Source: Haliotis asinina (taxonomy: Eukaryota > Mollusca > Gastropoda > Lepetellida > Haliotidae). Taken from it: DNA of 64,000 nucleotides. This document shows positions 11,572 through 64,000 of this stretch, piece by piece. The first letter of the stretch is position 1. The number at the start of each line of letters is the position of its first letter. The notes under the pieces are model-generated. The model was not told the DNA's origin and did not search any database. It worked only from the letters and a program-made list of their open reading frames with translations. The DNA lies in contig NC_090280.1 in NCBI RefSeq assembly GCF_037392515.1, forward strand, positions 22,821,118 through 22,885,117. The letters run 5' to 3'. The translations under genes and the position numbers were made by a program.

Positions 11572-11925
11572 GTACTACAACGAGGACCTGTCTACATCCA
11601 GTAACTTCCTACCTATTGGTTCCCTGACAGTAGTAAGTACCAGCGTCCTGTACAGTAACATTGTAGATGGTAAACCCCAGCTGTCCGGTCTGTGATGGTG
11701 AGTCCTCCCCGGTGTATCTGATCCTGGTCCTGTAGCCGGTGTGACTGCTGTTAATTACCTCTACACGGTGTGTCCTGGGCTGGACCAGTAACAGTCTCCC
11801 AGGTACCGAACCATTCAGCCATACAAAATATACGAAGCTGACATCCTTTGGCTTCATGGTCATGGTAACATCTTCGCCAACACGTGTAACAATGTATGGG
11901 TATCCAGTTGTCATGGAGGCAAGAC
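11572..11925 (-). pseudogene. V-like Ig exon V1, hybrid of alpha and beta types, with premature stop
   Basis: A 354-nt phase 1-1 exon with acceptor GAGTGCAG and donor C|GTGAGT. It encodes a V-like domain: GYPYIVTRVGEDVTMTM, then FVWLNGS, RIRYTGEDSPSQ, VQDAGTYYC and TGCRQVLVV. An in-frame TAG (at 11609-11611) replaces the CAG codon found at this place in the beta copies, just after the F-strand cysteine, so the domain loses its last strand. The left flank matches the alpha exon at 51150 while the right flank matches the beta exons at 32005 and 53990. No Ig, membrane or tail exons follow to the left in the window, so this is an orphan at the cluster edge. A short secreted product is possible but less likely. 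Confidence 0.75.
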
Positions 11926-13579
11926 CTGCACTCAAAACAAATAATACTCACTAGGTTGACATAAATATTGGAGCATATTATTTCAGCCTGCTCCATATAA
12001 TACAAGTTCACAGATACATACCACATATACAGGCACGCAAACGAAATGTAAGTCACAAATTAAAGCGTCAAAATATGAAGCAATACTATTTTCATAGAAA
12101 ACACTGGTCACTTATAAAAAGTCATGTAAAGCTCAGGATAATTCAAATGCTCTTTTCAGCTAGCACATACATACCACACACATGTAAGCCCCAAAACAGA
12201 ATGTGAGTCACAGACATATCTACTGGCGTGGTAAATTCATACTGACACATCACGCACTTTGACATTTGTTTTTAAGCGTTGAAATATTTAGTTTCGCTGG
12301 ATAATATTTCCCTAAAAAAGCGGGTAACTTCCCGTTGAATTTGAACCTATGTTTACGTGCGCTTAACGTTACATAGTCAGTAATGAGTTGTTTACATTCA
12401 TATCCACAGACAAATAATGTTGGTGACAAATTACTCACAAAACTGCTTTTGTTAAGTATTATTGCAGCTATATGGCGGCGGTTTGTATATAATCGAGTCT
12501 GGAATAGAGAATCCAGTGATCAATAGCATGAACATCAACTGCTCAACCAAGTCAACTAGTCACCCGATACCGTTAATCAGACAGATTGTTGTATTGGTTA
12601 TGGGGTCATGTTTGCCTGTACAGTTTACAAATCATCTACGAATGGTCAAAATATGGGTATAGAAAGGTTGATCGATGTTTGAAGATATTGTGAGGGAATA
12701 AAGTGGTTATATTGAACATTCGGCAGGAACAGTTAGTTGTCCATAATAAACATTTTGTAGCAGTGAAAACTATTCATCTCGTATATCCTGTTTTTTTCCT
12801 AACAAATGAAAAAAATAGGGTTGTATGTTTGAGTTTGTGCCGACCATCACAGTGTGAACGGTAAAATTCTGTTATTGGTGTATCATCGTCATTCCTATAT
12901 ATGTTGACTTTGAAATGGTTGTGGGATGCTCTATATTTACAAAATCCCTGGATCAAATGATGAGTTCTAGTTTCGAGCGTAATAATGTTCATTCATTAAC
13001 AACAACTTGAAACAGAACTTACTTACTTTTATTTGGGTACGTGGAGTTCCTTCTTATTATTGAAAATTCTAAATACAGACAAACAGACTTTATACGCTTG
13101 TTGAACCAGTCTCGATGAAAATATTATACTGAGATATTTATAATGCGTCACTAACAGTCACTGACAATGATGACGTCGTTACGGAGCACAATAATAGCTG
13201 ATGTGTCGAGATTCAGTTCCAAACCCACTGGGGCAAAACGATTCCAGAAAATTCAATTGTCTTTGGAGACCATAGATGATGTTACATAGACTTACAACTA
13301 GGAAATGAGTTAAATGGCCTACAAGCTATATTCAATCCAGAACGTTCATGTGTTAAGCCTTGAGTCGACGAACGGATTATATTTTCTTAGCCAATATCTA
13401 TTGTCTATCTAATTAGCACATGAACTGAATCCACATGTAAACCTAATATCTACTTTTGTCCAGAGATGATTCAACCGTTTTCATTATGGTTTGCCTAAAG
13501 GGACACGCATTTTAAGCGAAATGTCTCGAGTGCGTGCCACTGTATACGTATTTGGGTATTACTTGCTTCTCCGACTAGT
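11926..13579. other. Flank of V1, homologous to right flanks of both beta exons
   Basis: Diverged counterpart of 32354-33300 and 54338-55300, including a shared partial SINE (about 12458-12590, 32900-33050, 54885-55030). No coding exon recognised. Confidence 0.6.
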
Positions 13580-13817: not shown

Positions 13818-13889
13818 TTTGCTTCTCCTAATATGTTTTAGTAGTATAAGCAGATTTGATATGTGTTATTGAAAACTGGAGATATTAAA

Positions 13890-18370: not shown

Positions 18371-18868
18371 AGATGTGGAACTGTACCGTCAGTTTGGGTT
18401 TCACCTAGTACTGTGGTCCTCTGTTGAGGAAGATGAAGGATGGAAAGACGTGTAGATGTGGAACTGTACCGTCAGTTTAGGTTTCACCTAGTACTGTGGT
18501 CCTCTGTTGAGGAAGATGAAGGATGGAAAGACGTGCAGATGTGGAACTGTACCGTCAGTTTGGGTTTCACCTAGTACTGTGGTCCTCTGTTGAGGAAGAT
18601 GAAGGATGGAGAGACGTGTAGATGTGGAACTGTACCGTCAGTATAGGTTTTAGCTGGTACTGTGGTCCCCTGTTGAGGAAGATGAAGGATGGAGAGACGT
18701 GTAGCCGTGGAACTGTACCGTCAGTTTAGGTTTCACCTGGTACTGTGGTCCATTGATGAGGAAGATGAAGGATGGAGAGACGTGTAGCCGTGGAACTGTA
18801 CCGTCAGTTTAGGTTTCACCTGGTACTGTGGTCCTCTTTTGAGGAAGATGAAGGATGGAGAGATGTGT
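18371..18868. repeat. 83-bp minisatellite, six units, overlapping gene A last exon
   Basis: Unit starts at 18371, 18454, 18537, 18620, 18703 and 18786, with the next boundary at 18869: exactly 83 bp each. The rightmost unit holds the end of the gene A coding sequence and its stop; the other five lie in the presumed 3' untranslated region. Unit 2 has one repeat (38329-38411) and unit 3 has five (60083-60497). Confidence 0.9.
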
Positions 18869-18999
18869 AGATGTGGAACTGATCCCGCAGGAGTCGTTCG
18901 TAATCGTATAGGGGTAAGACATCGTTGTTGGAAGCACGAGGTACATCACTGAAGTCATGGGATAATCTCTCTGCCATCACAGTGAGATATTCACCAAAT
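18816..18999 (-). CDS. Gene A last exon: ITAM-like cytoplasmic tail
   Basis: Acceptor TTACAG, 184 nt, entering in phase 2 from the 16-nt microexon at 19343-19358. It encodes 60 residues with GEYLTV at 2-7, then YDYERL and IYTSL. YERLLRDQFHIYTSL fits the ITAM pattern YxxL-x7-YxxL. In known ITAM receptors, Src-family kinases phosphorylate both tyrosines and Syk/ZAP-70 binds through tandem SH2 domains. Ser-rich end, then TGA. The same exon has identical length in units 2 and 3. Confidence 0.75.
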
Positions 19000-21900
19000 C
19001 TGTAATCACAACATTACACTTATGTTGCACTTGCCCATAGGTGTATGTATTTTTCTTTCAAGCAGTGTGCAACGGAAATCACCTCCTATAAACCACTTCA
19101 ACTATGGTCATAGATTTCCAACACTTTTTTAGCAAATTGTGCATCAGTTACATAGATACATTTGCTACTTTCTCTGTCATTTCCACAGGTAATCGATGCC
19201 GGCGTTTATCTAAGATTTCTAAAGGTACGTTGAGTAAATGGTGTTTGACACAGAAGACAGCAACCGTTCATATGAAGATTTGTTCACTAGTTATTACGAT
19301 GACTGACTCCAGCACTTAAGATAAAAACATGAAAACGTGTACCTGTTGTCCTGGATCTCTGCAAGTAAAACAAAAGACTGAGTAACAGTAAAGAATTAGT
19401 CGCTCTCAGACTAGTCCATCAATATCACCAAAACTAGAACACTATAAATATGGCTTCATTATGCTCATATGGGGAATCGAACCTGCGTCTGTGGCGTGAA
19501 CACCCTATCCACTGGCCTACCGACCGCTCCATTACTGAATAAAGGAATCAAAACAACTTCACAAACTAAAATGAGAAGAAAATATTGCAGCACGTCAAGG
19601 TGAACCACGGATATGCCCGTATACTGTTCGACGCTGCATTCAACAATATCCCAGCTAGACTACGCTTGTCTGATACACGCCAGACTTGCCGAGAACACCC
19701 AGTGGTTGATATAAAGATTTACGCAACTGGGATACGTCGGAAAAACATGCATGAGCATAATCAACCAGCGTTTCTCACCTGTTGTAACAAGCATGGTTGT
19801 TGAAGTTCTGACCAGGCCCTCACGTTGGGGTAAATTTTTGTTGGTTGTGGTGTGTTGGGGATTGGAGGGGTGGGGGTTGAAACTTACATTGCATGCAAAA
19901 ATATTCATGCATTCGTTGTACCTTTCACGTCCCTGCAAACAAGAACAGTGACTGCTGCCACCACAACTGCCACAGCAGTCAGCATAATGGAGTAGACAGC
20001 TACGATGGGGACGATGTCGTCTACGTTTGCATCACCTTCTGATACAAGACAAAGATGACACATATCCGTATTAAGTATGATAATTCATGTGACAATATAG
20101 CGACGTATTTCACCATGGTGTATTTTCTAGTTCCTGTTACAGCACTAAATAACTTTATGACATAAATAATGTCAACTGACAAAACAGTATTTTGCTCTAC
20201 AAGAACTATGACACAATAAAGTAAGCAAGCGATGAATAAGGAAGAATCATTCACCGGGATGACCATTACAGCTCTCCAGACTAGTGGATCCTTTTCCCCA
20301 ACACGTCCTATCACCAATATCTGGTCGTCCTTTATGAACACTGAGAAATGTCCTACGTATTCGGACATCTGGAATATCCGACTCTATTTACAATGTTATA
20401 GCTATTCTATTATGGCTATTTCAGACTAAATAATCGGGGGTTTTGGTCTCCTTGGTTGGTTTGAGACACAGTCCTGTTCCAGGCTTCAGACACTAGCCAG
20501 TTCGTGCTACGTTTACTCGACATATCAGTACCCTATACGGCAGTTCGAGTTTCACAGTGGTTACACATCATGCTAGTTGTTAACCTTCAGACACCAACCT
20601 TCTATTTCCTGGTAGCTCCCATCATTTTCGTCTTCCCTGTGATACGACACCACACTGGTAAAAGGGAACATTGAACGTGAGCATAATGAGAGGAAATTAT
20701 TAAGCTGTGACACGCTCTCAGTTCATGTCGCGCTCCTAGTCGTGTATAGTTTTGTCTGGTTGGTTTGTTGTTTAACGCCACACTCAACAATATGACAACT
20801 ATATGTTGACGATCTATAAATAAATGGTCTTGGATCACATAATCCAGTGTTCAACAGCACAAGCTGTTCGTCAGCTTTTACGACAAGTATGGGTTGATGA
20901 AAATCACTTTACCACGGGTAATTACACCCATGTGGTGATGAAATATTTATTCATCTTACTTGAAGATTGATGAACATACTCACCGATGACGAGCACATCC
21001 TCTCTCTGAAAGTTTAAAGTGTGTGGGAACAATTATGCATACCAACTTAAAGTATATATTTATTTCTTGCACACTGATGTTACCATTTTTTCTCCATTTA
21101 GAAGTTTAAGAGTTTAAGAGATACTGTACATCATACGGTATGAGTTTCAGTAGAAGGTCAATCAGTGCTAATAGTTGTCAGAATTATAAAATGTTAATAG
21201 ACCTGTAGTCTTGGTTGCAAACGGTTCCGGACTGTTTTTCAGACATTCTACATAACACTACCCCTTAAATACTTCGCATGACCTGTTTAACGTCATCTGA
21301 ATCAACCGACGTGACGTACTAGAATGACGTCCAGCACCAACCTACTATCTCCTCGTAGCCTCCGCCTGTGTCTGCGTCACGGGTGTAAGTGACAACGCTG
21401 GGGGAAGGAAATGTAGAAGGTAGTTGGAATCAAGGATATTTACAAAAAGCAATCCGCTGTCCTCAGACACAAAATTTTGCAAAAGGACAAAAAAGTTGTT
21501 ACAGTTATATGCATGAATGTGTTAGCAAAATGGGTAAGTAAGTTAATAGTATTTGAAGCTCTTCTAACGTTTGCCTGAAAGAACGAAATCTTTTTGACAC
21601 CAACAGCTCATTACCGATGTGCCATTAATTCTGCTTGGGCTTATGCCTCACATATACTGCTACTGATAAGTGAAATAGAGCTAATCAAATCACTGTATTT
21701 GTGATTAAGTGTTTCCACAATAGCAGCTACTACATAATTTTAAGTCAGCTGTTTACACATTTGGCCTTACTCACCGATTACATGTGCATCCTTTACCTGA
21801 AACAAATAATTTTGTGTAAATAATGACATATCCACAATGTTAGATGCAAAATAGAAGATAAACGAATTTCCGGTATAATTATACATCTTTGAAGTGGAAA

Positions 21901-24900
21901 TAAATATCTTGCTATTTGTAGAACGACATGTTTATAGAACGACATGTTTGTAGAACGACATGTTTGTAGAACAAACGCAACCTGAGTAACACCAGTGTCT
22001 TGAAGCATGAATGTCGATTAAAACTAGTGTCCTGGAGCCAATGTAAACATAAACTTGGAAACTGAAGTCCATTAAACATGTAAATTTGTGCACACTGTTG
22101 ATATATATCCTCTTCAAGCATCATCTTGAAGGTTCCATACAGAATTACTTTAGAAACGCGAGTATCATATTATCATTCATTATGGAGGATGCAAAACGAA
22201 CAGAAACTGTGCTCAAATTAATCTGACTTTCACAGATGAACTTGACGCATACCAAGAAATGCCCACGTGACCCACCATTTGCTGGAAATCAACTTTTCAC
22301 CTGCAAAATCCGTGAAAATGCATAAACGTGGCGTTTTCACAACACATTGTCAGATCAGTCAACTGTATACCAAAATCACACCGAAATTTTGAACTGCACC
22401 AAATTGTTGACTTGGGTACAACATGTGATCGAGCACATCTTTGCCAACCATGTGTCTAGCCCGAGATCGCCGCATACAAGTTCAAGCCAGCCTCCAGAAC
22501 AGATATTACCATTCATGGAAGAAGGGATATCGTCAGTCTCCAGACGGTACGATAGCGATTACGTCAGCAAGGGCTGCGTGCGCATAAGTATTCTATTCAC
22601 TGACGAGTCCTGATTTCATCTCAGTCATGCGTATACAAGGATCAGAGTGACGTGGACAGCGTAACGGTGATTGTTGAGTTCAGCAGGGCTGAGGGAAGCG
22701 TATTACTAATGATTTGTTGAGAGACTGATAGTCATGGTAGGACACGTGTGGACGTCTGCCGTAGTCGAGTTACAGCTCAAAATGATACTTACTGAGAACA
22801 AGAGTCGTTCCTGCTCCCAGCATGGCGCCAGATCAACGTCTTCACATTTTGCAGCAGGATTATGCAAATGACGGTCAAAACCGTTACTGACATTGGCTCT
22901 GTGAAAGTTTTGAGCGCGTTTGGAAATAAATTTGATCCCTTCAACGTTATCGTTAATTCAACTTTGCACTGACTACTTTTGTTTTTTCTTGTGTTTCAAC
23001 CCTGATTGACAATTTCAGTGTCAAGAGGGACAAGTTCTTTTCTTCGTTTAAAACGGAGATTCAACGTCTTATCCCAATGGTGCGTTTCTAAAGTAGTTCA
23101 GTATACTTCACAGTCTCCTCTCACAATCTGTCCTCTTTCAAACTCTTCCTTAAAGACGGTCTCAGATTCCATTTCCCCACAAGAGACTTAGTCTTCTTCC
23201 TTGATGAATTGTTACCATCAAGGACACTTTTACATTTAATCAAGATACACAACAGACACGTAACAAATCACACCTAGAGAGAATCAGTAATATAGGTAGG
23301 ACAAAATCATCATTTCCTTGAAAATGTATCACATGTCAGTATGAAGTGAAATAATTATCAGCTAGCTTTCTACTGAGTATGGGTGGAAATAGACATCAGC
23401 CTCTACATACCAAAGTATTGTAATATGTTTTACAGACAAAGAAGAGGCTTGAAATCAATACTTATTAGTACTGCTTAACATTTCTATAGGTGCATAGATG
23501 TATATGAGTTGTGGGGTAAAACTATTTAAAGTACTACTCTGGTAACTATCTGATCCCCCATCCCCACCTTCCTAACCAGCGCGTCGTTTTCCCAGACTGT
23601 CATACATTATTCACTACATATAAGAAAGTGCAAAGGGATAACTTACTGACGATGCACTGAACACATACACACGCACACACGCACACACGCACACACGCAC
23701 ACGCACACTCACGCACACGCACAAGCATCCACTCAACACGCTATTAAGTGAGATCGGTATATGTAATTACTGAACCAAAGTGTTTGTGAGTTCTAGTCAT
23801 TCACTGTCACATCACACCGTTTTACCTCCACGTCTCTGTTTTCTACAAACAACAACCATGACGACGACAGTGATGATCACGATCAGGATGGAGCAGACAG
23901 CAGTCACTGGGACGATGGAAACGACACCAGATTCATTAAGCTCACGTGCTGAAACATTTAATATGGACAACATTCAGTTTAGCATTGTATAATCCTGTTT
24001 ACTTTTCAGAAACAAATAACATCCAAGATATGTTGCTTTATTTAAGGTACATGATGTGAGTGAGTAAATGAGTGGAGTTTTATATCACTTATACCCCAGA
24101 AACATCACCCCTCTTAAGAAGATTTTAATTAGGTTCATGGCATGTCAACCGGGTTGACCCTTCCGATGTTCATCTAAAATGACACTTTCCAACTGCAATA
24201 TAACCAGTTGCGTTCTCGATACAACACCCATCGATCCATCTTCATAGAGGGATCCAATAATAATGGTCAAGTTACCAGTGCTACTGTCATTGCATCAATT
24301 TGAAGGGAGTAAAAACTTTATTACATATCTCATGCAAATATAATCTTGAATTTTACATATTCTGTCACAAAGCATGTTTCCGGAATCTGTGGAGGCCTTA
24401 CTGAAGACCTCTAGTGTCAGGTTGCGTGATGCACTCCCATGGCTGTTGTTGACGTGACACGTGTACTGTCCAGACACAGACACATCTATAGCTGGTATAG
24501 ACAACACAGCCTTCCTGTGTCCTGTAATCACCATCTGTCTGGATGTGTCCCACCAGGTTACAGTGCAGGCAGGGTTACAGTCAGCAGAACATCTCACTGT
24601 TACAGGTTTCCCTTCTTCTACCTCCAGATCGTCCCTTGTGCCGTGAAACTGTATCTGGTCAGGTCCATCTGCAAAGCATGTGATATAATCAGAAATAATA
24701 ATTTGATAACTTGATATTTTCTTCTATCATACCAATACCACTGTCACATACCAAAGTAACCACAACAGAAGAATAGTTTGTTTTGCAAAACTTTATTCCT
24801 CCCCTTAAGATATAAGTAACCCCAATACCTATACTAAACTAATTCTACAGGTGCAAATACAACTAACTAATCTAATTACCTAACCTAGCTACATATACAG

Positions 24901-27900
24901 TTCTGTCTACCACTTATATTGCTAAAGTTCTAATAATACTACTACTACTACTAACTACACTAAAATCCTAATACCCTCACTAATATAGATAATGATTACA
25001 TATAATCCCAATCAGAAACTAAACAATTGAACTAAATAACAATAAAGGAATTTTCCACTCAGAGAGAACACTTTCTCTTTACAATGTAATCAGAATGTCA
25101 GTGCACTTTGGTTCCACTTGGTGACGTCATAGTATTTGTGTGGTATCCCTCACACCCAGGCGATGGTTTCCCTCACGGAGTTTAAGGGGCTTGTGTAATG
25201 GTTGATGGCTGTGCCATATATAACAATATATAACACACTCTAACAATACCATACTACATCTATTTACAGTACCATAAACTAATTATATAAACGAAATCAT
25301 CTGTGATCTTGACAACCACCTTATATCAATTTCACTTGAATTAATATTTCATCAACTTTCGGTTTAGACTTTTGAAGTTGGTTAGGTTTTATTTTTTACT
25401 CAATGCCTATTCTACTTTTAGTGTTGATCACATCTACATCTGCTAGCCTTGTCGAGTCTAGGCTCACCAATATAAGACTCCCAGTTTCAAAGATCTTACT
25501 GTTGTCACGAAAATATTACATTCAAATGCAAACGACGACACATTACGCACATTCTGTTTTCGTTCCTCTAAGTCATACGTGTACGTATCAGTCAGGTATT
25601 CCGACTGGATGGTCGACCGCGACCGCAGCAGGGGAAACGTCCAATGTTTTCTTTGTACGAGCTGGATAGCCGCTCAACTGTGATTTTGTTAACAGTGGGA
25701 ATCTACAGTCAACTGTATTTTGTATGTACACGTCCGATATTGTCATGTGTATGCTCCGCCTGACCAACGTTGACAGTTCGAGTCATGTATTATCTTGACG
25801 TTCCTGTATATCTCATCTGATGCCCTTACGATTGTATCTCTAATGATCAGTGCCTGTACCAGATATTGTCAACGTTTCATGCATTTTACCGTATTCTTAA
25901 TTGTAAACCCAATATTGTCACGATTTTAAAAAGAAGCGTTTTTGAGGACAAAAACCCCATGAGTGAGTGAGTGAGTAGGTTGAGTTTTACGCCGCACTCA
26001 GCAATATTCCAGCTATATAGCAGCGGCCTATAAATAATCGAGTCTGGACCAGACAATCCAGTGATCAATAACATGACCATCGATCTGCGCAAATGGGAAC
26101 CGATGACATGTGTCAACCAAGTCAGCGAGCCTGACCACCCCATTCCGTTAGTCGCGTCCTACGACAAGCAGAGTCGCTTTTTATGGCAAGCATAGGTTGC
26201 TGAAGGCCTATTCTACCCCGGGACCTTTACGGGTACTCGTCGATAAATCACTGTAGATTATTTTTCCCATAATTTTCTTGCATCTGTGCATGGTCAGAGT
26301 TTTCAGGGTCAAATCACACACTCCTGACTGAAAATTGTAAACATGAAATTTTCATGCCATACTTTCAATCGCTTTGATCTGATTCAGTACATATTATGTA
26401 TTGTTAGTTTTGTGTCGATCTTTCGTATTTCAGCTGAGTGGCCCGTGCCCGTTTTTTGCTCATTTAAAATATATGTCCAGGTGAGAAACAATGACATTAC
26501 ATAATTTTAAAGTGTTCGTGTATATTGGACATAACACCTGACACCGCTTGCCTTTGAAGCTGAAAGCCTTCACCACAGATTCTGGCTGTGTTCTCTTCCG
26601 AAAGTTCTATATCAACGGACGCCAGTAATGCCTTTTTGTTAGCGCTATGAGTAAACATGGTGTGGAGTTTGGAGCTATATAAATTGACACATTATTGTGT
26701 AGCTGTCATTAAGTCCTATCAGAACCACAAAGGTACTATCATAATAATGATTTAGAACATAACGGTTCTATGTAAGTTGTATGCTAAGTTGCATAGATAT
26801 GCGAGGTTCCTGTACCGTAAACAAAGGTACGTTCTTACTCACAGAGGACATCCAGTACATGTTCGTGACTCCAGTCAGACTCCAGCCCCTCCTCCACAGC
26901 CTGGCAGCTGTAGGTGTCTCCCTGGTTCTCTCCGCTGACCTGGGTTATTGTCAAGTTATCTCCACCTGTTGGAGACTCATCACCAGATTCTAGGAGGGTC
27001 CTGTCCCTCCTCCAGATGTAGGTCATGGTCAGTTGGGGGTGGTCCGGGGGCAGACTCCGGGACGAGGAGTTGGAGCATGTGAGGGTGACATTCTCACCTG
27101 ATACAGGTGAGGCAGGTCCGGTGATGGTAGGTGTGGTTGGCCTCTCTGTGAAAACAATTTAACAGCTTCGCCGAGACCTTAACACCAGTACTAATCAACA
27201 TGGTTTTACGAAATGTGTGAAAAACATTTTAAAATATGAATCCACTGAGACATAATGAACTAAATGAACTGAATGAACTAAATGCTCTGACACTTTTATT
27301 AATGACGTATTCACCTTTATTGTCAATCAAATAAGCGCCAGCGACACGCTAATACTCCTAATCGGTTTGTTGATTAAATGTTCTACACAACATTTAATCA
27401 GTTGGCTGGACTAATCCCAAGGTGCGGCGTAAAAATGACATTAGATATGCTCGTTGTTGTTACCTTGACTGGCGCTCGGGATTATAGCAACGAGACAGGT
27501 GGATTCGGATATACTGCGAGTGAGTAGTTGGTTGGACTGTTGTTAACACGTAAGAACATTCCATATATATATATATATATATGGCTGCGATCTGTAAATA
27601 ATCAAGTCTGGACCGGACAATCCCGTGACCAGCATCATGAGCATACATCTACGCAATTGGGATACGATAACATGTGTCAACCAAGTCAGCGAGTCTGACT
27701 ACCCAATCCCATTAGTCGTCTCGTGCGACAAGCAAGGGGTAAAGAAGACCAATTCTAACCCGGATCTTCACGGGTATACTGTGAGTAGGCTTGCCATGTG
27801 TAACTCGACAAAAGCACATGCATGCACACGCACGTACACACACACGAGTCTTTATATATGGTTAATTACGTTTTAGTTTAGACGCATTCTTTTAGTTATC

Positions 27901-28850: not shown

Positions 28851-28859
28851 GCTTGTACG

Positions 28860-31615: not shown

Positions 31616-31667
31616 AAAATACTGCGAGTGAGTAGTTGGTTGCATGGCTGTTAACACTTATAAACAT

Positions 31668-32004: not shown

Positions 32005-32353
32005 GTGCTACAACGAGGACATGTCTACATCCAGTAACTTCCTGTCCATTGGTTCCTTGACAGTAGTAAGTACCAGCGTCCTGTACAGTAACATTGTAGA
32101 TGGTAAACCTCAGTTGTCCGGTCTGTGATGGTGAGTCCTCCTCGGTGTATCTGATCCTGGTGCTGTAGCCAACTACTGTTGAGTACCTCTAGACGGTGTG
32201 ACTTGGACTGGACCAGTAACAGTCTCTTAGATACCGAACCATTCACCCATACAAAATATAAGAAGCTGACATTGTCTGGGTTCATGGCCATGGTAACATC
32301 TTCACCAACACGTGTAACAGTGTATGGGTATCCAGTTGTCATGGAGACTAGAG
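32005..32353 (-). pseudogene. V-like Ig exon beta 2, frameshifted
   Basis: Acceptor GAGTGCAG and donor C|GTGAGT are kept, but the length is 349 nt, one more than a multiple of three. The extra base follows AACAGTAGT, so RIRYTGED is read out of frame. The first half is a normal V-like domain (GYPYTVTRVGEDVTMAM, FVWVNGSVSKRLLLVQ). Beta 3 shares the same shift, so the break predates their duplication. Confidence 0.8.
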
Positions 32354-44500: not shown

Positions 44501-47500
44501 TTTCTATCATACCAATACCAGCATATATCAATTTCACTTGAATTGATTTTTCATCAACTTTGGGTTTAGAGGGGGTTTTTTTTCTCATGCCAATTCTACT
44601 TTTAGGGCTGATCACATCTACATCTGCTAGCCTTGTCGAGTCAAGGCTCACCAATATAAGACTCCCAGTTTCAAAGATCTTACTGTTGTCACGAATCATT
44701 ACATTCAAATGCAAACGACGACACATTACGCATATTCTGTTTTTGTTCCTATAAGTCATACGTGTACGTATCCGTCAGGTATTCCGACTGGATGGTCGAC
44801 CGCGAGCGGGAGTTTCCCGCTCGGCGGGAACGTCCAATGTTTTCTTTGTACGAGCTGGGCAGCCGCTCAGCTGAGATTTTGTTAACAGCTGGATTCTCCG
44901 ATCACCTGTATTTTGTGTGTACACGTCCAATATTGTCATCGGTATGCTCCGCGTGACCAACGTTGACAATTCGATTCATGTATTATCTTGACGTTCCTGT
45001 ATATCTCATCTGATGCCCTTACGATTATATCTCTAATTATCAGTGCTTGTATCAGACATTGTCAGCGTTTCATGCATTTCACCATATTCTTAAGTGTAAA
45101 CCCAATGTTGTCACTATTTTAAAAAGAAGCGTTTTGAGGACAAAAGCCCCATGAGTGAGTGAGTGATTGGGTTGAGTGTTACGCCGCACTCAGCAATATT
45201 CCAGCTATATAGCAGTGGTCTATAAATAAGGTAACCAGTTAAAACCCCCTTCGTTTAGTGAACGCCCACCATTCAGCAATGCTTGCTTGAAATGCCGTGA
45301 ACATTTAGCCCCGTGGTTGGTATTGAGTCTCCTGTCTTCCGTATTTTCCTGATGTTTTACATAACCTTCTTTTGACCTTTGTCCGTCACCGTACATTTAC
45401 ATTCTCTGAAATCTGCATGTTTGACGATAGAATTGCGAACCCGAGGAACATAAATTGGCGCTTTCCGTAACCCGATTCAATCTGATTCAGTACATGTTAT
45501 GTATTGTTAGTTTTGTGTTGATCTTTTGTATTTGTGCTGAGTGGTCCATGCCCGATTTTGCTCATTCAAAACATATGTCCAGGTGAGCAACAATGACATG
45601 ACATAATTTTAAAGTGTTCGTGTATATTGGACATAACACCCGACACCGCTTGCCTTTGGAGCTGAAAACCCTCACCACAGATTCTGGCTGTGTTCTCTTC
45701 CGAAAGTTCTAAATCAACGGACGCCAGTAATGCCTTTTTGTTAGCGCTATGAGTAAACATGGTGTGGAGTTTGGAGCTATATATATATATTGACACATTA
45801 TTATGTTGCTGTCATTAAGTCCCATCCGAACCACAAAGATACTATCATAATAATGATTCAGGACATAACGGTTCTATGTAAGTTTCATACTAAGTTGCAT
45901 AGATATGTGAGGTTCCTGTACCGTAAACAAGGGTACGTTCTTACTCACAGAGGACATTCAGTACATGTCCGGGACTCCAGTCAGACTCCAGCCCCTCCTC
46001 CACAGTCTGGCAACTGTAGGTGTCTCCCTGGTTCTCTCTGCTGACGTGGGGTATTGTCAGGTCATCTCCAACTGTAGGAGACTCATCACCAGATTCTAGC
46101 AGGGCTATGTCCCTCCTCCAGATGTAGGTCATGGTCAGTGGGGGATGGTCCGGGGGTAGACTCCGGGAGGAGGAGGAGCATGTGAGGGTGACATACTCAC
46201 CTGATACAAGTGAGGCAGGTCCGGAGATAGTAGGTGTGGTTGGCCTCTCTGTGAAAAAAAATATAACAAATGATCCGAGATCTTAACACCAATGCCAATA
46301 AACATGGTTTTACTAAATGTGTGGTTGGCCTGTCTGTGAAAAACATTTTAGAATATGAATTCACTGAGACATAATAAACTGAATGAACTAAATGCTCTGA
46401 CACTTTTATTAATGAAGTATTCACCTTTATTGTCAATTAAATAAGCGCTAGCGAGCTGCTAATACTCCTAACCGATGTGTTGATTAATGCACTACACAAC
46501 TACTTTCCCCTTGGTCAGATGAATAAATCATTTGCCCGGAGAGAGATGGGTTGCTGGATTGATCCCAAGGTGCGTCGCAAAAATGACGTTAGATATGCTA
46601 GTTGTTGTTACCCTGACTGGCGCTTGGGATTATTGTAACAAGACAGGTGGATTCAGACTGTTGTTTTTAACACCGCGCTCAACAACATTCGAGCTATATG
46701 GCGGAGATCTGTAAATAATCGAGTCTGGGCCAGACAATCCAGTGATCAACATCATAAGCATACATTTACGCAGTTTGGGGTACGATGACATGTGTTAACC
46801 ATGTCAAGGAGCCTGACTGTCCTACCAGTTGATCCCAAGGTGCGTCGCAAATGACGTTAGGTATGCAAGTTTTTGTTACCCTGACTGGCGCTTGGGATTA
46901 CAGCAACAAGACAAGTGGATTCGGACTGTTGTTTTTAACACCGCGCTTAACAACATTAGAGCTATATCTTAATACTCCAAACCGTTTTGTTGATTACGTA
47001 TGATAGTTACCAAACAACTACTGGCTGAATCGCGTTAAGCGTATTTTCCAGAGAGAGGCATTGAAAGATGCAAGACTAATCGATTCGGATACACTTATAC
47101 ATGTATTAACATGGTGGAAATGCACAATATTTTATAAAGATTCTATGACAGAATATTTTATTGAAATATCGAAATGCTACACGTGCCACATCTTCAGTCT
47201 GCCAAGGGTCACACTGATAACGAAGGTCCAAGACCAGGATCTTGTAAGTGTCAACAGATAGAGGTAGGCTAATCCAATTTATCGTGTACTTCACTCGTGG
47301 TCACACTGATATCGAATGTCCACGACAAATATCTTGTATGTGTCAGCAGATGCATCGTGTCTTTCGCTTGTCAACGCCGTTGTGGTCAAATACGTTATGA
47401 AAATCTTTATGTAATTCTGACAGATAGAGTAACTCAACTTCGCAGTAGGTACGTTATCGGTACTCGAATTAGGCAATAGGATTGAGATACAACAACTTAT

Positions 47501-50500: not shown

Positions 50501-51525
50501 TCATTATGTACTGCGTAATGTTGTTTTGGATATGCTAGTATTTAATTTATAAGATGTATGAACGAAATTGTGTTGATGCTATGTGTTAGAAATGTATCTT
50601 GATTTATGTAGTATGTGTTGTGTACATCGACGTATGATGATTATGTACTTTGTATAGCAGCATGTAATGATAATGTATTTTGACAACTGATTACTGATTG
50701 TCTATATGTTTTAATAATTATTTGTACCCTATATTATTGTGATTAATTATGTAAAATCATCCTGTGACTGTGGCGCAATAAACTCCTTGTTTATTTACTC
50801 AGGTTCTCGTGTTGTGTGTGGGTTGGTATAGTTACACCTCCTAGCTGCCAAGCGAGCTGATTCCCCAAACTCGCGAGTTAACACATGTTAACCTGCGATA
50901 AAGCTTCTTCTCGGCAGGTACAGAAGAACCAGCGTTTCTCTGAAATAGTTGACATACACACCATACACACTTGCACACACGCAAGCACACACACATTAAC
51001 ACAAACATTCCCTCCAGACTCATGTCACCATATCCGATAATTTCCTCTCACCTAAGCTTTCGCTATTGGTAATACAAGGTTGCACAACTGTTCATTCATG
51101 TTGGAGATGCATTAAGACAGTTAAGCTTCATTCTTCATATACTACTCACGTGCCACAACGAGGACCTGTCTACACCCAGTAACTTTCTGTCCATTGCTTC
51201 CCTGACAGTAGTAAGTACCAGCGTCCTGTACAATAACATTGTAGATGGTAAACCTCAGCTGTCCGGTCTGTGATGGTGAGTCCTCCCCGGTGTATCTGAT
51301 CCTGGTCCTGCTGCGTACCACTACACGGTGTGACAAGGGGTGGACCAGTAACAGTCTCACAGATACCGAACCATCCACCCATACATAATACACAAAGCTG
51401 ACATTCTGTGGGTTCATGGTCATGGTAACATCTTCACCAACGCGTGTAACAGTGCGTGGGTATCCAGTTGTCATGGAGGCAAGAGCAGTATACAAAAAGG
51501 TAATTAGAATCAGATACATAGCCAT
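38359..51525 (-). CDS. Gene B: IgSF receptor with ITAM-like tail (spliced, predicted)
   Basis: Predicted exons, 5' to 3': 51525-51150 leader fused to V, 46248-45949 Ig1, 44452-44186 Ig2, 43445-43323 TM-a, 41301-41280 microexon, 40882-40827 Y1, 40479-40458 microexon, 40120-40065 Y2, 39503-39387 TM-b, 38904-38889 microexon, 38542-38359 tail. Sum 1539 nt, 512 residues. All phases match and no stop or frameshift is seen. The first intron (46249-51149) contains an LTR-element fossil and a tRNA-derived SINE. Unlike gene A, leader and V are one exon. Architecture and expected role as for gene A; the same question over TM-a versus TM-b applies. Confidence 0.7.
39387..39503 (-). CDS. Gene B TM-b exon
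   Basis: 117 nt, acceptor CTTATATCAG, donor G|GTACAA. Encodes EGDANVDDLVPIVAVYSVML and TAVAVVVAAVTVLVCKDVK. Phase 1-1. Confidence 0.75.
40065..40120 (-). CDS. Gene B Y2 exon
   Basis: 56 nt, encodes LVSYHREDENDGSYQEIE. The acceptor lies in CTTTTACCAG; the first residue is Leu where gene A has Val. Confidence 0.7.
40458..40479 (-). CDS. Gene B second 22-nt microexon
   Basis: Same sequence and splice sites as 20984-21005 in gene A. Confidence 0.65.
40827..40882 (-). CDS. Gene B Y1 exon
   Basis: 56 nt, encodes VVTYTRDANTDGGYEEIV. The YEEI motif is retained although neighbouring residues differ from gene A. Confidence 0.7.
41280..41301 (-). CDS. Gene B first 22-nt microexon
   Basis: Acceptor TTTGTTTCAG, donor GTGAGTAAG. 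Adds GRGCTYYR in the chained frame. Confidence 0.65.
41790..42380 (+). mobile_element. Tc1/mariner transposase relic (unit 2)
   Basis: Same insertion as 22330-22930. Includes RDRRIVFTLF and LFTDES-like pieces with several breaks; about 30 bp present here are missing from unit 1 after RDRR. Confidence 0.65.
43098..43192. repeat. (CACACG)n microsatellite
   Basis: Near-perfect ACACGC run in the intron between TM-a and the first microexon. Confidence 0.9.
43323..43445 (-). CDS. Gene B TM-a exon
   Basis: 123 nt, acceptor AATGTTTCAG, donor G|GTAATA. TRELNESGVVNIVPVTAVSS, then a hydrophobic run ILIVVIAVVVIVVV and CRNQRRG. Confidence 0.8.
44186..44452 (-). CDS. Gene B Ig2 exon
   Basis: 267 nt. VTVRCSVDCNPACTVTWWDT and VSGQYMCHVNNSHGNASR: same domain as gene A Ig2 with scattered substitutions and all four cysteines kept. 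Confidence 0.85.
45949..46248 (-). CDS. Gene B Ig1 exon
   Basis: 300 nt, donor T|GTGAGT. SGEYVTLTCSSSSRSLPPD, TYIWRRDIALLESGDE, NQGDTYSCQTVEEG. One codon shorter than gene A in the B-C region. Confidence 0.85.
46672..46830 (+). mobile_element. SINE-like repeat, partial
   Basis: ATGGCGGAGATCTGTAAATA through GATGACATGTGTTAACC. A ~100-bp block starting GATCCCAAGGTGCGTCGCAA is present twice (46561 and 46833), a local duplication around this copy. Confidence 0.65.
47112..47622 (+). repeat. 5' LTR
   Basis: 511 bp. Contains two internal GTCACACTGATA...GTGTCA(A/G)CAGAT segments, the TATA-like GGGTATAAAACAGG and the hairpin CACAGTCAC...GTGACTGTG just before AATAAA. Confidence 0.65.
49497..50007 (+). 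repeat. 3' LTR
   Basis: Same 511-bp sequence, preceded by the purine-rich stretch GAACGGGGGAA, a possible polypurine tract. Confidence 0.65.
50198..50335 (+). mobile_element. tRNA-derived SINE
   Basis: A-box-like TAGTGGCCAGAGCG and B box GGGTTCAATTCCCC, then the tail GGCACAATGTGTTAAGCCCA...GCTGTAAAACCC. It does not fold as a complete tRNA. Tail fragments of the same family lie at 28636 and 51705. Confidence 0.7.
50755..50870 (+). mobile_element. LTR 3' end plus leader of a related element
   Basis: 50755-50802 matches the last ~48 bp of the LTRs at 47112 and 49497. It continues GTGTTGTGTGTGGGTTGGTA, a leader also seen near 35690 and 57510. Fossil fragment. Confidence 0.55.
51150..51525 (-). 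CDS. Gene B first coding exon: signal peptide fused to V-like Ig (alpha 3)
   Basis: ATG at 51523-51525 starts MAMYLILITFLYTALA, a good signal peptide with an ALA|S cleavage site, directly followed by SMTTGYPRTVTRVGEDVTM. V-like motifs: YVWVDGSVSVRLLLV, RIRYTGEDSPSQ, VQDAGTYYC, TGCRQVLVVA; donor C|GTGAGT. The usual leader intron is absent: the signal peptide is encoded by sequence that in gene A is intron, and the former acceptor CAG now reads CTG. An upstream in-frame ATG at 51615 (MFIRKYC...) could also be used. Confidence 0.75.
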
Positions 51526-53595: not shown

Positions 53596-53644
53596 ACACT
53601 GCGAGTGAGTAGTTGGTTGCGTTGCTGTTTACACATAACAACAT

Positions 53645-53845: not shown

Positions 53846-53989
53846 ACTGCCATCTTTAACTCCACAAAAGCACACGCATGCACACGCATGCACACGCACG
53901 TTTACACACACATGTTTATATATGGTTAATTACGTTTTAGTTTAGGCGCATTCATTTAGTGATTTACCGTTCTGTTAACTCCACTCTCA

Positions 53990-54337
53990 TGCTACAACGG
54001 GGACATGTCTACATCCAGTAACTTCCTGTCCATTCTTTCCTTGACAGTAGTAAGTACCAGCGTCATGTACAGTAACATTGTAGATGGTAAACCTCAGCTG
54101 TCCGGTCTGTGATGGTGAGTCCTCTCCGGTGTATGTGATCCTTGTCCTGTAGCCGACTACTGTTGAGTAATTCTACACGGTGTGCCTTGGGTTGGACCAG
54201 TAACAGTCTCTTAGATACAGAACCATTCCCCCATACATAATATAGGAAGCTGACATTTTCTGGGTTCATGGTCATGGTAACATCTTCACCAACACGTGTA
54301 ACAGTGTATGGGTATCCAGTTGTCACGGAGACTAGAG
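53990..54337 (-). pseudogene. V-like Ig exon beta 3, frameshifted and without splice donor
   Basis: Shares with beta 2 the one-base shift after AACAGTAGT, and in addition the donor region reads GCATGAGAG instead of GCACGTGAG. The 5' half is a good V-like domain (GYPYTVTRVGEDVTMTM, YVWGNGSVSKRLLLVQ). An open frame reaches upstream through the acceptor to an ATG at 54401 and would read as a leader, but the broken domain makes function unlikely. Confidence 0.8.
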
Positions 54338-60082: not shown

Positions 60083-60497
60083 AGATGTGGAACTGTACCG
60101 TCAGTTTAGGTTTCACCTAGTACTGTGGTCCTCTGTTGAGGAAGATGAAGGATGGAAAGACGTGTAGATGTGAAACTGTACCGTCAGTTTAGGTTTCACC
60201 CAGTACTGTGGTCCTCTGTTGAGGAAGATGAAGGATGGAGAGACGTGTAGCCGTGGAACTGTACAGTTAGTTTAGGTTTCACCTGGTACTGTGGTCCTCT
60301 GTTGAGGAAGATGAAGGATGGAGAGACGTGTAAGTGTGGAACTGTACCGTCAGTTTAGGTTTCACCTAGTACTGTGGTCCATTGATGAGGAAGATGAAGG
60401 ATGGCGAGACGTGTAGACGTGGAACTGTACCGTCAGTTTAGGTTTCACCTAGTACTGTGGTCCATTGATGAGGAAGATGAAGGATGGAGAGATGTGT
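60083..60497. repeat. 83-bp minisatellite, five units (unit 3)
   Basis: Unit starts at 60083, 60166, 60249, 60332 and 60415, next boundary 60498. The rightmost unit holds the end of the gene C tail exon. Confidence 0.9.
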
Positions 60498-60628
60498 AGA
60501 TGTGGAACTGATCCCGCAGGAGTCGTTCGTAATCGTATAGGGGTAAGACAACGTTGTTGGAAGCACGAGGTACATCTCTGAAGTGATGGCATGATCTCTC
60601 TGCCATCACAGTGAGATATTCACCAAAT
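60445..60628 (-). CDS. Gene C last exon: ITAM-like tail
   Basis: 184 nt. GEYLTV, then YDYERLLRDQFHIYTSL and a Ser-rich end. The segment before the ITAM has changed (AERSCHHFRDV instead of AERLSHDFSDV) while the ITAM is identical to gene A. Confidence 0.75.
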
Positions 60629-63600
60629 CTGTAATCACAACATTACACTTATGTTGCACTTGCCCATAGGTGCATGTATTTTTCTTTCAAGCAGTGTGCA
60701 GCGGAAATCACCTCCTATAAACCACTTCAACTATGGTCATAGATTTCCAACACTTTTTTAGCAAATTGTGCATCAGTTACATAGATACATTTGCTACTTT
60801 CTCTGTCATTTCCACAGGTAATCGATGCCGGCGTTTATCTAAGATTTCTAAAGGTACGTTGACTAAATGGTGTTTGACACAGAAGACAGCAACCGTTGAT
60901 ATGAAGATTTGTTCACTAGTTATTACGATGACTGACTCCAGCACTTAAGATAAAAACATGAAAACGTGTACCTGTTGTCCTGGTTCTCTGCAAGTAAAAC
61001 AAAAGACTGAGTAACCGTAAAGAATTAGTCGCTCTCAGACTAGTATATCAACATCACCAAAACTAGAACACCATAAATATGGCTTCATTATGCTCATATA
61101 GGGAATCGAACCTGCGTCTGTGGCGTGAACACCCTATCCACTGGCCTACCGACCGCTCCATTACTGAATAAAGGAATCAAAACAACTTCACAAACTAAAA
61201 TGAGAAGAAAATATTGCAGCACGTCAAGGTGAACCACGGATATGCCCGTATACTGTTCGACGCTGCATTCAACAATATCCCAGCTAGACTACGCTTGTCT
61301 GATACACGCCAGACTTGCCGAGAACACCCAGTGGTTGATATAAAGAGCGTCGATATACGCAACTGGGATACGTCGGAAAAACATGCATGAGCATAATCAA
61401 CCAGCGTTTCTCACCTGTTGTAACAAGCATGGTTGTTGAAGTTCTGACCAGGCCCTCACGTTGGGGTAAATTTTTGTTGGTTGTGGTGTGTTGGGGATTG
61501 GAGGGGTGGGGGTTGAAACTTACATTGCATGCAAAAATATTCATGCATTCGTTGTACCTTTCACGTCCCTGCAAACAAGAACAGTGACTGCTGCCACCAC
61601 AACTGCCACAGCAGTCAGCATAATGGAGTAGACAGCTACGATGGGGACGATGTCGTCTACGTTTGCATCACCTTCTGATACAAGACAAAGATGACACATA
61701 TTTGTATTAAGTATGATAATTCATGTGACAATATAGCGACGTATTTCACCATGGTGTATTTTCTAGTTCCTGTTAGAGCACTAAATAACTTTATGACATA
61801 AATAATGTCAACTGACAAAACAGTATTTTGCTCTACAAGAACTATGACACAATAAAGTAAACAAGCGATGAATAAGAAAGAATCATTCACCGGGATGACC
61901 ATTACAGCTCTCCAGACTAGTGGATCCTTTTCCCCAACACGGCCTATCACCAATATCTGGTAGTGCTTTATGAACACTGAGAAATGTCATAACTATTCGG
62001 ACATCTAGAATATCCGACACTATTTACAATGTTATAGCAATTCTATTATGGCTATTTAAGACTAAATAATCGGGGGTTTTGGTCTCCTTGGTCGGTTTGA
62101 GACACGAGTCCTGTTCCAGGCTTCAGACACTAGACAGTTCCAGCTACGTTTACTCGACATATCAGTACCCTATACGGCAGTTCGAGTTTCACAGTCGTTA
62201 CACATCATGCTAGTTGTTAACCTTCAGACACCAACCTTCTATTTCCTGGTAGCTCCCATCGTTTTCGTCTTCCCTGTGATACGACACCACACTGATAAAA
62301 ATGAACATTGAATGTTAGCATAATGAGAGGAAATTATTAAGCTGTGACACGCTCTCAGTTCATATCGCGCTCCAAGTCGTGTATAGTTTTTGTCTGGTTG
62401 GTTTGTTGTTTAACGCCACACTCAGCAATATGACAACTATATGTTGACGATCTATAAATAAATGGTCTTGGATCACATAATCCAGTGTTCAACAGCACAA
62501 GCATCGATCCCGTTCGTCAGCTTTTACGACAAGTATGGGTTGATGAAAATCACTTTACCACGGGTACTTACACCAATGTGGTGATGAAATATTTATTCAT
62601 CTTACTTGAAGATTGATGAACATACTCACCGATGACGAGCACATCCTCTCTCTGAAAGTTTAAAGTGTGTGGGAACAATTATGCATACAAACTTAAAGTA
62701 TATATTTATTTCTTGCACACTGATGTTACCATTTTTTCTCCATTTAGAAGTTTAAGAGTTTAAGAGATACTGTACATCATACGGTATGAGTTTCAGTAGA
62801 AGGTCAATCAGTGCTAATAGTTGTCAGAATTATAAAATGTTAATAGACCTGTAGTTTTGGTTGCAAACGGTTCCGGACTGTTTTTCAGACATTCTACATA
62901 ACACTACCCCTTAAATAATTCGTATGACCTGTTTAACGTCATCTGAATCAACCGACGTGACGCACTAGAATGACGTCCAGCACCAACCTACTATCTCCTC
63001 GTAGCCTCCGCCTGTGTCTGCGTCACGGGTGTATGTGACAACGCTGGGGGAAGGAAATGTAGAAAGTGGTTGGATTCAAGAATATTTACAAAAAACAATC
63101 AGCTGTCCTCAGACACAAAATTTTGCAAAAGGACAAAATAGTTGTTACAGTTATATGCATGAATGTGTTCACAAAATGGGTAAGCAAGTTATCAGTATTT
63201 GAAGCTCTTCTAACGTTTGCCTGAAAGAACGAAATCTTTTTGACACCAACAGCTCATTAACGATGTGCCATTAATTCTGCTTGGGCTTATGCCTCACATA
63301 TACTGCTACTGATAAGTGAAATAGAGCTAATCAAATCACTGTATTTGTGATTAAGTGTTTCCACAATAGCAGCTACTACATAATTTTAAGTCAGCTGTTT
63401 ACACATTTGGCCTTACTCACCGATTATATGTGCATCCTCTACCTGAAACAAATAATTTTGTGTAAATAATGACATATCCACAATGTTAGATGCAAAATAG
63501 AAGATAAACGAATTTCCTGTATAATTATACATCTTTGAAGTGGAAATAAATATCTTGCTATTTGTAGAACGACATGTTTATAGAACGACATGTTTGTACA

Positions 63601-64000
63601 ACGACATGTTTGTAGAACAAACGCAACCTGAGTAACACCAGTGTCTTGAGGCATGAATGTCGATTAAAACTAGTGTCCTGGAGCCAATGTAAACATAAAC
63701 TTGGAAACTGAAGTTCATTAAACATGTAAATTTGTGCACACTGTTGATATATATCCTCTTCAAGCATCATCTTGAAGGTTCCATACTGAATTACTTTAGA
63801 AACGCGAGTATCATATTATCATTCATTATGGAGGATGCAAAACGAACAGAAACTGTGCTCGAATTAATCTGACTTTCACAGATGAACTTGACGCATACCA
63901 AGAACTGCCCACGTGACCCACCATTTGCTGGAAATCAACTTTTCACCTGCAAAATCCGTGAAAATGCATAAACGTGGCGTTTTCACAACACATTGTCAGA
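60445..64000 (-). CDS. Gene C: IgSF receptor, 3' part only (5' part beyond window)
   Basis: Recognised exons: 63442-63421 microexon, 63043-62988 Y1, 62651-62630 microexon, 62291-62236 Y2, 61674-61558 TM-b, 60987-60972 microexon, 60628-60445 tail. All lengths equal those of genes A and B and the phases chain without a stop. By analogy, TM-a, Ig2, Ig1, V and leader should lie to the right of 64000. Sequence is closest to gene A across TM-b and the tail. The real coding sequence inside the window ends, going rightwards, at 63442. Confidence 0.7.
61101..61159 (-). mobile_element. tRNA-derived SINE head (unit 3)
   Basis: B box AGGTTCGATTCCC on the minus strand, same insertion as 19465. Confidence 0.55.
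61558..61674 (-). CDS. Gene C TM-b exon
   Basis: 117 nt, same coding sequence as gene A as far as I can read: EGDANVDDIVPIVAVYSIML, then the hydrophobic span and CRDVK. Confidence 0.75.
62236..62291 (-). CDS. Gene C Y2 exon
   Basis: 56 nt, VVSYHREDENDGSYQEIE. The acceptor is weaker (TTTTTATCAG). Confidence 0.65.
62630..62651 (-). CDS. Gene C second 22-nt microexon
   Basis: Identical to 20984-21005 with the same splice sites. Confidence 0.6.
62988..63043 (-). CDS. Gene C Y1 exon
   Basis: 56 nt, encodes VVTYTRDADTGGGYEEIV, as in gene A. Confidence 0.7.
63421..63442 (-). CDS. Gene C first 22-nt microexon
   Basis: Acceptor TTTGTTTCAG, donor GTGAGTAAG; adds GRGCTYNR in the chained frame. The last gene C exon I can see before the right edge. 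Confidence 0.6.

What the first reader, a model, noticed from the sequence alone, without database searches (positions are those of the whole stretch)
11572..64000. Tandem family of putative immune-type Ig receptors with ITAM-like tails in a mollusc
Three head-to-tail units encode V-Ig-Ig-TM receptors whose last exon carries a YxxL-x7-YxxL motif. Sequence shows: conserved splice phases and open exons in all units, plus three broken V exons nearby. Known: this layout (variable-type Ig, TM, ITAM, tandem copies, pseudogenes) is typical of vertebrate activating receptors such as FcR, KIR and NITR families. Inference: an independently expanded molluscan receptor cluster.
Basis: partly seen in the sequence, partly recalled or inferred. 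Interest (0 to 1): 0.9.

Follow-up and report, generated by a model that had tools for sequence, protein, structure and literature searches.

The report
Tandem ITAM-tailed immunoglobulin receptor genes
A stretch of animal DNA (probably a mollusc, not proven here) carries head-to-tail copies of a gene for a cell-surface immunoglobulin receptor with an immune-type activation tail, and each complete copy seems to offer two alternative membrane anchors, so it looks like an invertebrate counterpart of vertebrate activating receptor clusters.

Summary
The observation mostly holds. The genes lie on the minus strand. The window has two complete units and the 3' part of a third, not three complete units. 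Each complete unit reads through a spliced chain (leader, V-like Ig, Ig, Ig, TM, tail) of 424 and 419 aa with AG/GT borders and matching phases; unit 2 has leader and V fused. The last exon carries YERL-x7-YTSL in 3 of 3 copies. The three broken V exons are real.

Best model: splicing picks TM1 plus a long tail (8-10 tyrosines) or TM2 plus a short ITAM tail (4 tyrosines).

Between units 1 and 2, exons show 0 frameshifts against 8.2 expected (P=0.0003). V replacement changes cluster in one half, resembling CEACAM N domains; positive selection there is not significant (P=0.18).

Precedents exist: an oyster Ig/TM/ITAM receptor, Hydractinia Alr clusters, vertebrate CEACAMs. It is a new variant of a known kind. 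Species, transcription and signalling were not testable here.

The parts
28413..28455 (-). Unit 1 leader exon (MFLGSIVSVALCGF), ends phase 1
   Evidence: ATG to GT donor, joins V in frame
27932..28276 (-). Unit 1 V-like Ig exon, phase 1-1
   Evidence: Pfam 'ig' above cut-off, V-set and Ig_3 below; splice sites
26843..27145 (-). Unit 1 Ig1 exon, phase 1-1
   Evidence: Pfam Ig_2/ig above cut-off
24402..24668 (-). Unit 1 Ig2 exon, phase 1-1
   Evidence: Pfam I-set/Ig_3/ig above cut-off
23826..23948 (-).
   Evidence: 44% identical to TM2 over 34 columns, E 8e-7
21775..21796 (-). Unit 1 microexon mxa, 22 nt, phase 1-2
   Evidence: conserved AG/GT in 3 of 3 units
21342..21397 (-). Unit 1 tail exon Ea (VVTYTRDADTGGGYEEIV), phase 2-1
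   Evidence: homologous to Eb
20984..21005 (-). Unit 1 microexon mxb, 22 nt, phase 1-2
   Evidence: identical in 3 of 3 units
20599..20654 (-). Unit 1 tail exon Eb (VVSYHREDENDGSYQEIE), phase 2-1
   Evidence: Ea/Eb pS 0.78, pN 0.31 over 18 codons
19922..20038 (-). Unit 1 TM2 exon, phase 1-1
19343..19358 (-). Unit 1 microexon mxc, 16 nt, phase 1-2
18816..18999 (-). Unit 1 terminal tail exon with YERLLRDQFHIYTSL (ITAM consensus)
51150..51525 (-). Unit 2 fused leader+V exon; the leader intron is deleted, so signal peptide and V lie in one exon
45949..46248 (-). Unit 2 Ig1 exon
44186..44452 (-). Unit 2 Ig2 exon
43323..43445 (-). Unit 2 TM1 exon
41280..41301 (-). Unit 2 microexon mxa
40827..40882 (-). 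Unit 2 tail exon Ea (VVTYTRDANTDGGYEEIV)
40458..40479 (-). Unit 2 microexon mxb
40065..40120 (-). Unit 2 tail exon Eb
39387..39503 (-). Unit 2 TM2 exon
38889..38904 (-). Unit 2 microexon mxc
38359..38542 (-). Unit 2 terminal tail exon, YERLLRDQFPIYTSL (no acidic residue just before the first Y)
63421..63442 (-). Unit 3 microexon mxa
62988..63043 (-). Unit 3 tail exon Ea
62630..62651 (-). Unit 3 microexon mxb
62236..62291 (-). Unit 3 tail exon Eb
61558..61674 (-). Unit 3 TM2 exon
60972..60987 (-). Unit 3 microexon mxc
60445..60628 (-). Unit 3 terminal tail exon with ITAM consensus; V/Ig/TM1 of this unit were not seen and would lie beyond the window
11572..11925 (-). Broken V exon (remnant of a further unit at the array edge): in-frame stop
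32005..32353 (-). Broken V exon: frame-shifting 5-nt deletion; no GT at the place of the unit 1 leader donor
53989..54337 (-). Broken V exon: same 5-nt deletion, V donor GT lost, no GT at the place of the unit 1 leader donor

Best explanation
The locus is a tandem array of paralogous single-pass immunoglobulin receptors. An N-terminal V-like domain that varies mainly in one half (by position its C-C'-C'' part) sits on two more conserved Ig domains. Binding of an unknown ligand (microbe, parasite or self/non-self molecule) would lead to phosphorylation of an ITAM in the receptor's own tail (YERL-x7-YTSL) and recruitment of a Syk-type kinase. Each complete gene carries two homologous TM exons, both phase 1-1. 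TM1 is followed by two [22-nt + 56-nt] tyrosine cassettes; TM2 splices straight to the ITAM end. Choosing one TM would give either a long tail with YEEI and YQEI sites plus the ITAM, or a short tail with the ITAM only. New copies probably arise by unequal crossing-over. Shown from sequence: exon chain, phases, open frames, homology, coding constraint, copy structure. Inferred: expression, exclusive choice of TM, signalling, immune role, mode of copying, mollusc origin.
For: Open spliced frames of 1,275/1,260 nt (TM2 form) and 1,437/1,422 nt (TM1 form) with AG/GT sites. Filtered phase 1-1 scan: 13 of 13 candidates overlap Ig1, Ig2, TM1, TM2. Unit1-unit2 indels in 1,511 exon nt: 2, both multiples of 3, against 10.1 expected; frameshifts 0 against 8.2, P=0.0003 (a first version that counted TM1 and cassettes as intron gave 6.3, P=0.0018). 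Substitutions: intron 8.8%, all non-V exons 6.3% (73 of 1,163, P=0.004), V 11.9%. Replacement changes: V above seven pooled exons of the rest, P=0.0012; within V 21 in one 36-codon stretch against 4 in the last 52 codons compared, P=4e-6, border chosen post hoc. Ea/Eb pS 0.78, pN 0.31 over 18 codons. TM1/TM2 homologous, E 8e-7; Ea/Eb E 6e-6. Both TMs strongly hydrophobic. Units 1 and 3 are 96-99.8% identical where units 1 and 2 are 88-95%.
Against: No transcript was available. The 16- and 22-nt microexons rest on splice signals, phase and conservation only; the donors of Ea and Eb (GTTGGT) and of the TM exons (TM2 GTACAA, TM1 GTAAAA in unit 1 and GTAATA in unit 2) are poor. Pooled non-V pN/pS (0.057/0.085) is only mildly below 1, and per-exon dN/dS of 0.5-0.9 (V 0.96) does not prove purifying selection; unit 1 against unit 3 tail even has 9 replacement and 1 silent change. 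In the variable V stretch pN above pS is not significant (21 of 82 against 3 of 26, P=0.18), nor is V against introns (P=0.06). TM1 diverges near the intron rate (10 of 123). AlphaFold models were poor (pLDDT 47.6 and 58.4) and the fold search found nothing at E<=0.001. The V domain lacks the usual first cysteine.
Confidence: 0.62

Rival explanations
1. Only one of the two TM/tail ends is used; the other is a decaying relic of an older tandem duplication. Each gene then makes one receptor form.
For: TM1 changes near the intron rate (10 of 123 nt); mxa changes in 3 of 22 nt; pseudo-exons are common here (three broken V exons); Ea/Eb donors are weak.
Against: TM1, mxa, Ea, mxb and Eb keep frame and AG/GT borders in every copy in the window (2 of 2 for TM1, 3 of 3 for the others), and Ea and Eb keep their tyrosines; Ea/Eb show constraint.
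Confidence: 0.25
2. The array encodes adhesion or allorecognition proteins (neural, gamete or colony-type self-recognition) rather than pathogen receptors; the tyrosines are mainly endocytic or adaptor-docking motifs.
For: Solved-structure matches include generic adhesion IgSF (Dscam, NCAM2, contactins, titin). YxxL sites also fit tyrosine sorting signals (recalled).
Against: ITAM spacing exact in 3 of 3 tails; variable V, slower chassis, tandem copies and decayed V exons fit recognition receptors. Allorecognition would show the same.
Confidence: 0.25
3. A mostly dead gene cluster: transcribed or not, the copies make no functional receptor.
For: Three of five V exons are broken; unit 2 has a roughly 4-kb insertion between V and Ig1 and a fused leader; dN/dS not far below 1.
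Against: Zero frameshifts and no stops in two complete chains at about 9% intron divergence, P=0.0003.
Confidence: 0.1

Closest known systems
Oyster Ig/TM/ITAM receptor (CgIgIT2 as named in review PMC11999971; passages seen)
   Same: Molluscan, extracellular Ig domains, one TM, ITAM in its own tail; reported to recognise microbes and drive a defence protein
   Different: Five Ig domains reported against three here; no sequence could be compared. The review's own reference list has a paper calling CgIgIT2 an inhibitory receptor, so its statement is not clean. The iScience 2020 paper it cites is not held.
Vertebrate CEACAM family (PMC2832619, PMC5112662, PMC5856374; passages seen)
   Same: V-like N domain plus IgC-like domains, ITAM or ITAM-like tails, clusters with pseudogenes, gene conversion, fast change in C-C'-C'', signalling changed by splicing of TM/tail exons; first solved-structure match for the unit 1 model (CEA, E 1.7e-20)
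   Different: CEACAM ITAM YxxL is split by phase-0 introns; here the ITAM is in one exon with phase 1/2 tail introns. In Xenopus the FG region varies too; here that part is conserved. For the unit 2 ectodomain titin, Dscam and MAG lead, CEACAM6 only E 1.5e-7.
Hydractinia Alr family in the allorecognition complex (PMC11067881 passages)
   Same: Invertebrate clustered single-pass IgSF receptors with many likely pseudogenes
   Different: Cnidarian; no Alr sequence was compared; role is self-recognition.
Dscam exon 17 (PMC1397879 passages)
   Same: Two tandem, mutually exclusive TM exons in an IgSF receptor gene
   Different: Far larger Ig/FnIII protein; here the first TM choice would also bring extra tail exons.

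Membership tests
Immunoglobulin superfamily receptor | Ig domains above curated profile cut-offs | tested here: met
   ig, Ig_2, Ig_3, I-set above cut-off in both full models
Immunoglobulin superfamily receptor | Canonical V-set with B-F cysteine pair | tested here: not met
   B-strand cysteine position is Met in 5 of 5 V copies; F-strand Cys and a later TGC kept in the DNA of all five. Single V exons are under the V-set cut-off 26 (23.6, 19.1, 22.1)
ITAM receptor | YxxL/I-x6-8-YxxL/I in the cytoplasmic tail | tested here: met
   3 of 3 tail exons
ITAM receptor | Acidic residue at -1 to -3 of the first Y (E/Dx0-2Y, PMC2832619 passage) | tested here: inconclusive
   Met in 2 of 3: units 1 and 3 (DYERL), not unit 2 (GYERL)
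ITAM receptor | Tyrosines phosphorylated by Src kinases and bound by Syk/ZAP-70 | not testable with these tools
   needs biochemistry
Paired activating/inhibitory receptors | ITIM-tailed partner ([SIVL]xYxx[LVI], recalled consensus) | tested here: not met
   No match in the tails of 3 units; one ITSM-like TYYRVV in unit 2 only, at mxa/Ea. Other family members outside the window unseen
CEACAM family | ITAM YxxL split by phase-0 introns | tested here: not met
   ITAM lies within one exon, tail introns phase 1 and 2
CEACAM family | N-domain diversification in C-C'-C'' and FG | tested here: inconclusive
   21 against 4 replacement changes between halves, post hoc border; FG part conserved; pN above pS not significant, P=0.18
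CEACAM family | Syntenic position between lipe and bcl3 | not tested
   no search for these genes was made
Hydractinia Alr family | Sequence homology to Alr domains | not tested
   no Alr sequence at hand
   Generic IgSF-level matches only: V exon to KIR/Fc receptors E 0.004-0.07 (60 of 268 rows shown); whole models to PIR-B 4e-8 and 6e-7, LILRB1 2e-5, FCRL4 2e-6. NITR not compared

The most novel reading that the evidence does not exclude
One invertebrate gene, repeated in tandem, encodes by exclusive choice of two TM exons two kinds of receptor with the same recognition domain: a long tail of eight to ten tyrosines (two YE/QEI cassettes plus ITAM) and a short ITAM tail of four. This is a splice-based answer to what vertebrates do with paired receptor genes, while tandem exchange and change on the C-C'-C'' face diversify recognition.
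Probability: 0.35. Interest if true: 0.78.

Novelty: new variant of a known kind. Interest (0 to 1): 0.58.

Why it matters
If expressed in blood cells, it would show a protostome arriving independently at the vertebrate layout of tandem, changing ITAM receptors, and would add a switchable membrane anchor and tail inside each gene. It gives an exact exon map that RNA reads can test at once.

Tried and rejected
Three complete units: rejected, the third is cut by the window end. Frames read through the TM region by the six-frame list (for example YVAILSHELSYLI at about 20.1 kb): rejected, they do not join the Ig exons by phase as TM2 does. CEACAM membership: rejected on intron phases. A protein containing both TMs: the frame is open but it would put the ITAM outside the cell, so rejected as the main form. 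Structure route: AlphaFold models of V and Ig1 were too poor; the fold search with the V model gave galectins and Ig V domains (TCR, antibodies) at E 0.15 and worse, not used; the Ig1 model was not searched. The host genome is not held. The RT ORF found no relative in viral contigs. A bacterial promoter scan has no meaning for animal DNA and was ignored. Rfam and tRNA scans were empty. Pfam hits TraP, UL95, DUF6328 are below cut-off.

Full report
What is there. Self-comparison shows a direct-repeat array from about 11.4 kb to the right end, with aligned blocks of 150 bp or more mostly 75-97% identical. The receptor exons read on the minus strand, so gene order runs from high to low coordinates. 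Unit 1 spans about 28.5 to 18.8 kb and unit 2 about 51.5 to 38.4 kb; of unit 3 the exons recognised lie between 63.4 and 60.4 kb. A V exon at 11.9 kb is the last trace of a further unit at the array edge; a tblastn of V, Ig1, Ig2, TM1, TM2, Ea, Eb and tail peptides against the window (E up to 1) gave nothing to its left but one V hit at E 0.59.

Extracellular exons. V, Ig1 and Ig2 are single-exon domains with phase 1-1 borders, save that unit 2 V starts with its own ATG. The Pfam 'ig' family passes its cut-off for unit 1 V and for Ig1 and Ig2 of both units; the unit 2 V exon passes none. V-set passes only for whole models, where scores of several Ig domains add up. The V domain is unusual: the B-strand cysteine position is Met in 5 of 5 copies, while the F-strand cysteine and a second one (VTGC) are kept. 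Unit 1 has a separate leader exon. Unit 2 has lost the leader intron and the V acceptor AG, and reads MAMYLILITFLYTALAS... directly into V.

TM2, a 16-nt microexon and the last exon join in frame to give YLTV and YERLLRDQF(H/P)IYTSL before the stop, in 3 of 3 units. Under the consensus given in PMC2832619 (passages) units 1 and 3 have a full ITAM and unit 2 an ITAM-like motif.

A filtered scan of the unit1-unit2 alignment for conserved phase 1-1 exons gave 13 candidates, all overlapping four exons: Ig1, Ig2, TM2 and a second TM at 23826-23948. V could not pass because unit 2 lost its acceptor. Further reading found two pairs of small exons between the TMs: 22 nt (phase 1-2) followed by 56 nt (phase 2-1), encoding VVTYTRD...YEEIV and VVSYHRE...YQEIE. 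Each pair is 26 codons, phase 1-1 overall. The chain TM1-mxa-Ea-mxb-Eb-mxc-tail is open in both complete units and, from mxa on, in unit 3. The long tail has 8, 10 and 9 tyrosines in units 1, 2 and 3 counted from mxa, the short tail 4. TM1 and TM2 are homologous (44% over 34 columns, E 8e-7), as are Ea and Eb (50% over 20, E 6e-6). So the 3' end seems to have grown by internal exon duplication. Because the modules are phase 1-1, TM1 plus cassettes, or TM2, can be included or skipped without frame change. A protein with both TMs would place the ITAM outside the cell, so exclusive use is inferred.

Constraint. In well-aligned introns of units 1 and 2 there are 469 substitutions in 5,308 nt and 36 indels of up to 60 nt in 5,373 nt, 29 not multiples of three; longer gaps and poorly aligned stretches were left out, which lowers the expectation. 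In 1,511 exon nt (all unit 1 exons but the leader) there are 2 indels, of 9 and 3 nt. Expected frameshifts 8.2, observed 0, Poisson P=0.0003. Non-V exons change less than introns (73 of 1,163, P=0.004); V changes more, not significantly (40 of 336, P=0.06). Replacement changes in V exceed those in seven pooled other exons (P=0.0012) and pile up in 36 codons (21, against 4 in the last 52; P=4e-6); the border was set after seeing the data, the C-C'-C'' names follow the sequence pattern and a low-confidence model, and pN above pS inside the stretch is not significant (P=0.18). Xenopus Ceacam N exons show fast change in C-C'-C'' and also FG (PMC5112662 passages); here the FG part is conserved. Overall pN/pS in the rest is 0.057/0.085, so selection in the two-copy comparison is mild, and the unit 1-unit 3 tail comparison has 9 replacement and 1 silent change.

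Array dynamics. Units 1 and 3 share 96-99.8% over 22.4-18.8 kb whereas units 1 and 2 share 88-95% there, and at 16.0-18.2 kb both comparisons give 91-92%. This mosaic fits recent exchange between copies. The two broken V exons at 32 and 54 kb share one deletion, so that V was probably dead before these units separated.

Relatives. Solved-structure searches give CEA first for the unit 1 model (E 1.7e-20, best 60 of 447 shown) but titin, Dscam and MAG for the unit 2 ectodomain, that is, generic IgSF; the two queries were not of equal extent. A review states that oyster CgIgIT2 has five Ig domains, a TM and an ITAM (PMC11999971 passages). Hydractinia has clustered Alr IgSF genes with many likely pseudogenes (PMC11067881 passages). 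Dscam has two alternative TM exons (PMC1397879 passages). Horse CEACAMs change signalling by splicing TM and tail exons (PMC5856374 passages). In ten paper searches, several with capped lists (for example 12 of 731), no title or abstract start that I saw described a molluscan tandem cluster of this layout. Most subscription journals are not held, so I do not claim it is unpublished. That YEEI is a favoured Src-family SH2 site, that CEACAM N domains lack the core disulphide, and the ITIM/ITSM patterns used are recalled, not from a call.

Verdict. The finding is real and somewhat richer than reported. It is a new variant of a known kind: an invertebrate-type tandem ITAM-IgSF receptor family with an apparently switchable membrane anchor and modular tyrosine tail. 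Function, expression and species remain inferred.

Noticed in passing
18358-18881 and 60070-60510: An 83-bp minisatellite (6.3 and 5.3 copies) starts inside the tail exon and repeats the DNA for the second ITAM half (FHIYTSLHPSSS); 83 is not a multiple of 3 and the reading frame stops in the first copy. No such array was reported in unit 2.
   Followed up: partly
47104-50008: Two 520-bp direct repeats, 99.4% identical, enclose 1.87 kb inside a unit-2-specific insertion between V and Ig1; LTR-like, but no TG/CA ends with a 4-6 nt target duplication were found within 8 nt of the repeat ends.
   Followed up: partly
5176-8635: Non-LTR retrotransposon: reverse transcriptase ORF open over 1070 aa (Pfam RVT_1, E 5e-34) with a sub-threshold endonuclease match; a further endonuclease-like piece seems to lie in another frame at 8345-8635 (by eye).
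   Followed up: partly
1812-2421, 13578-13816, 25961-26237, 27578-27775, 31655-31867, 46660-46818: Short interspersed repeat of about 150-270 bp in both orientations, MITE- or SINE-like (further copies exist).
   Followed up: no
20933-21152 with unit 2 and 3 counterparts: About 220 bp around microexon mxb nearly identical in all three units (110 columns fully so), above the flanks: gene conversion or a splicing control element.
   Followed up: no
41280-41301 joined to 40827-40882: In unit 2 only, the mxa/Ea junction reads TYYRVV, an ITSM-like pattern; units 1 and 3 lack it.
   Followed up: no
89-720: Tandem and inverted repeats of about 100-230 bp units at the left end.
   Followed up: no
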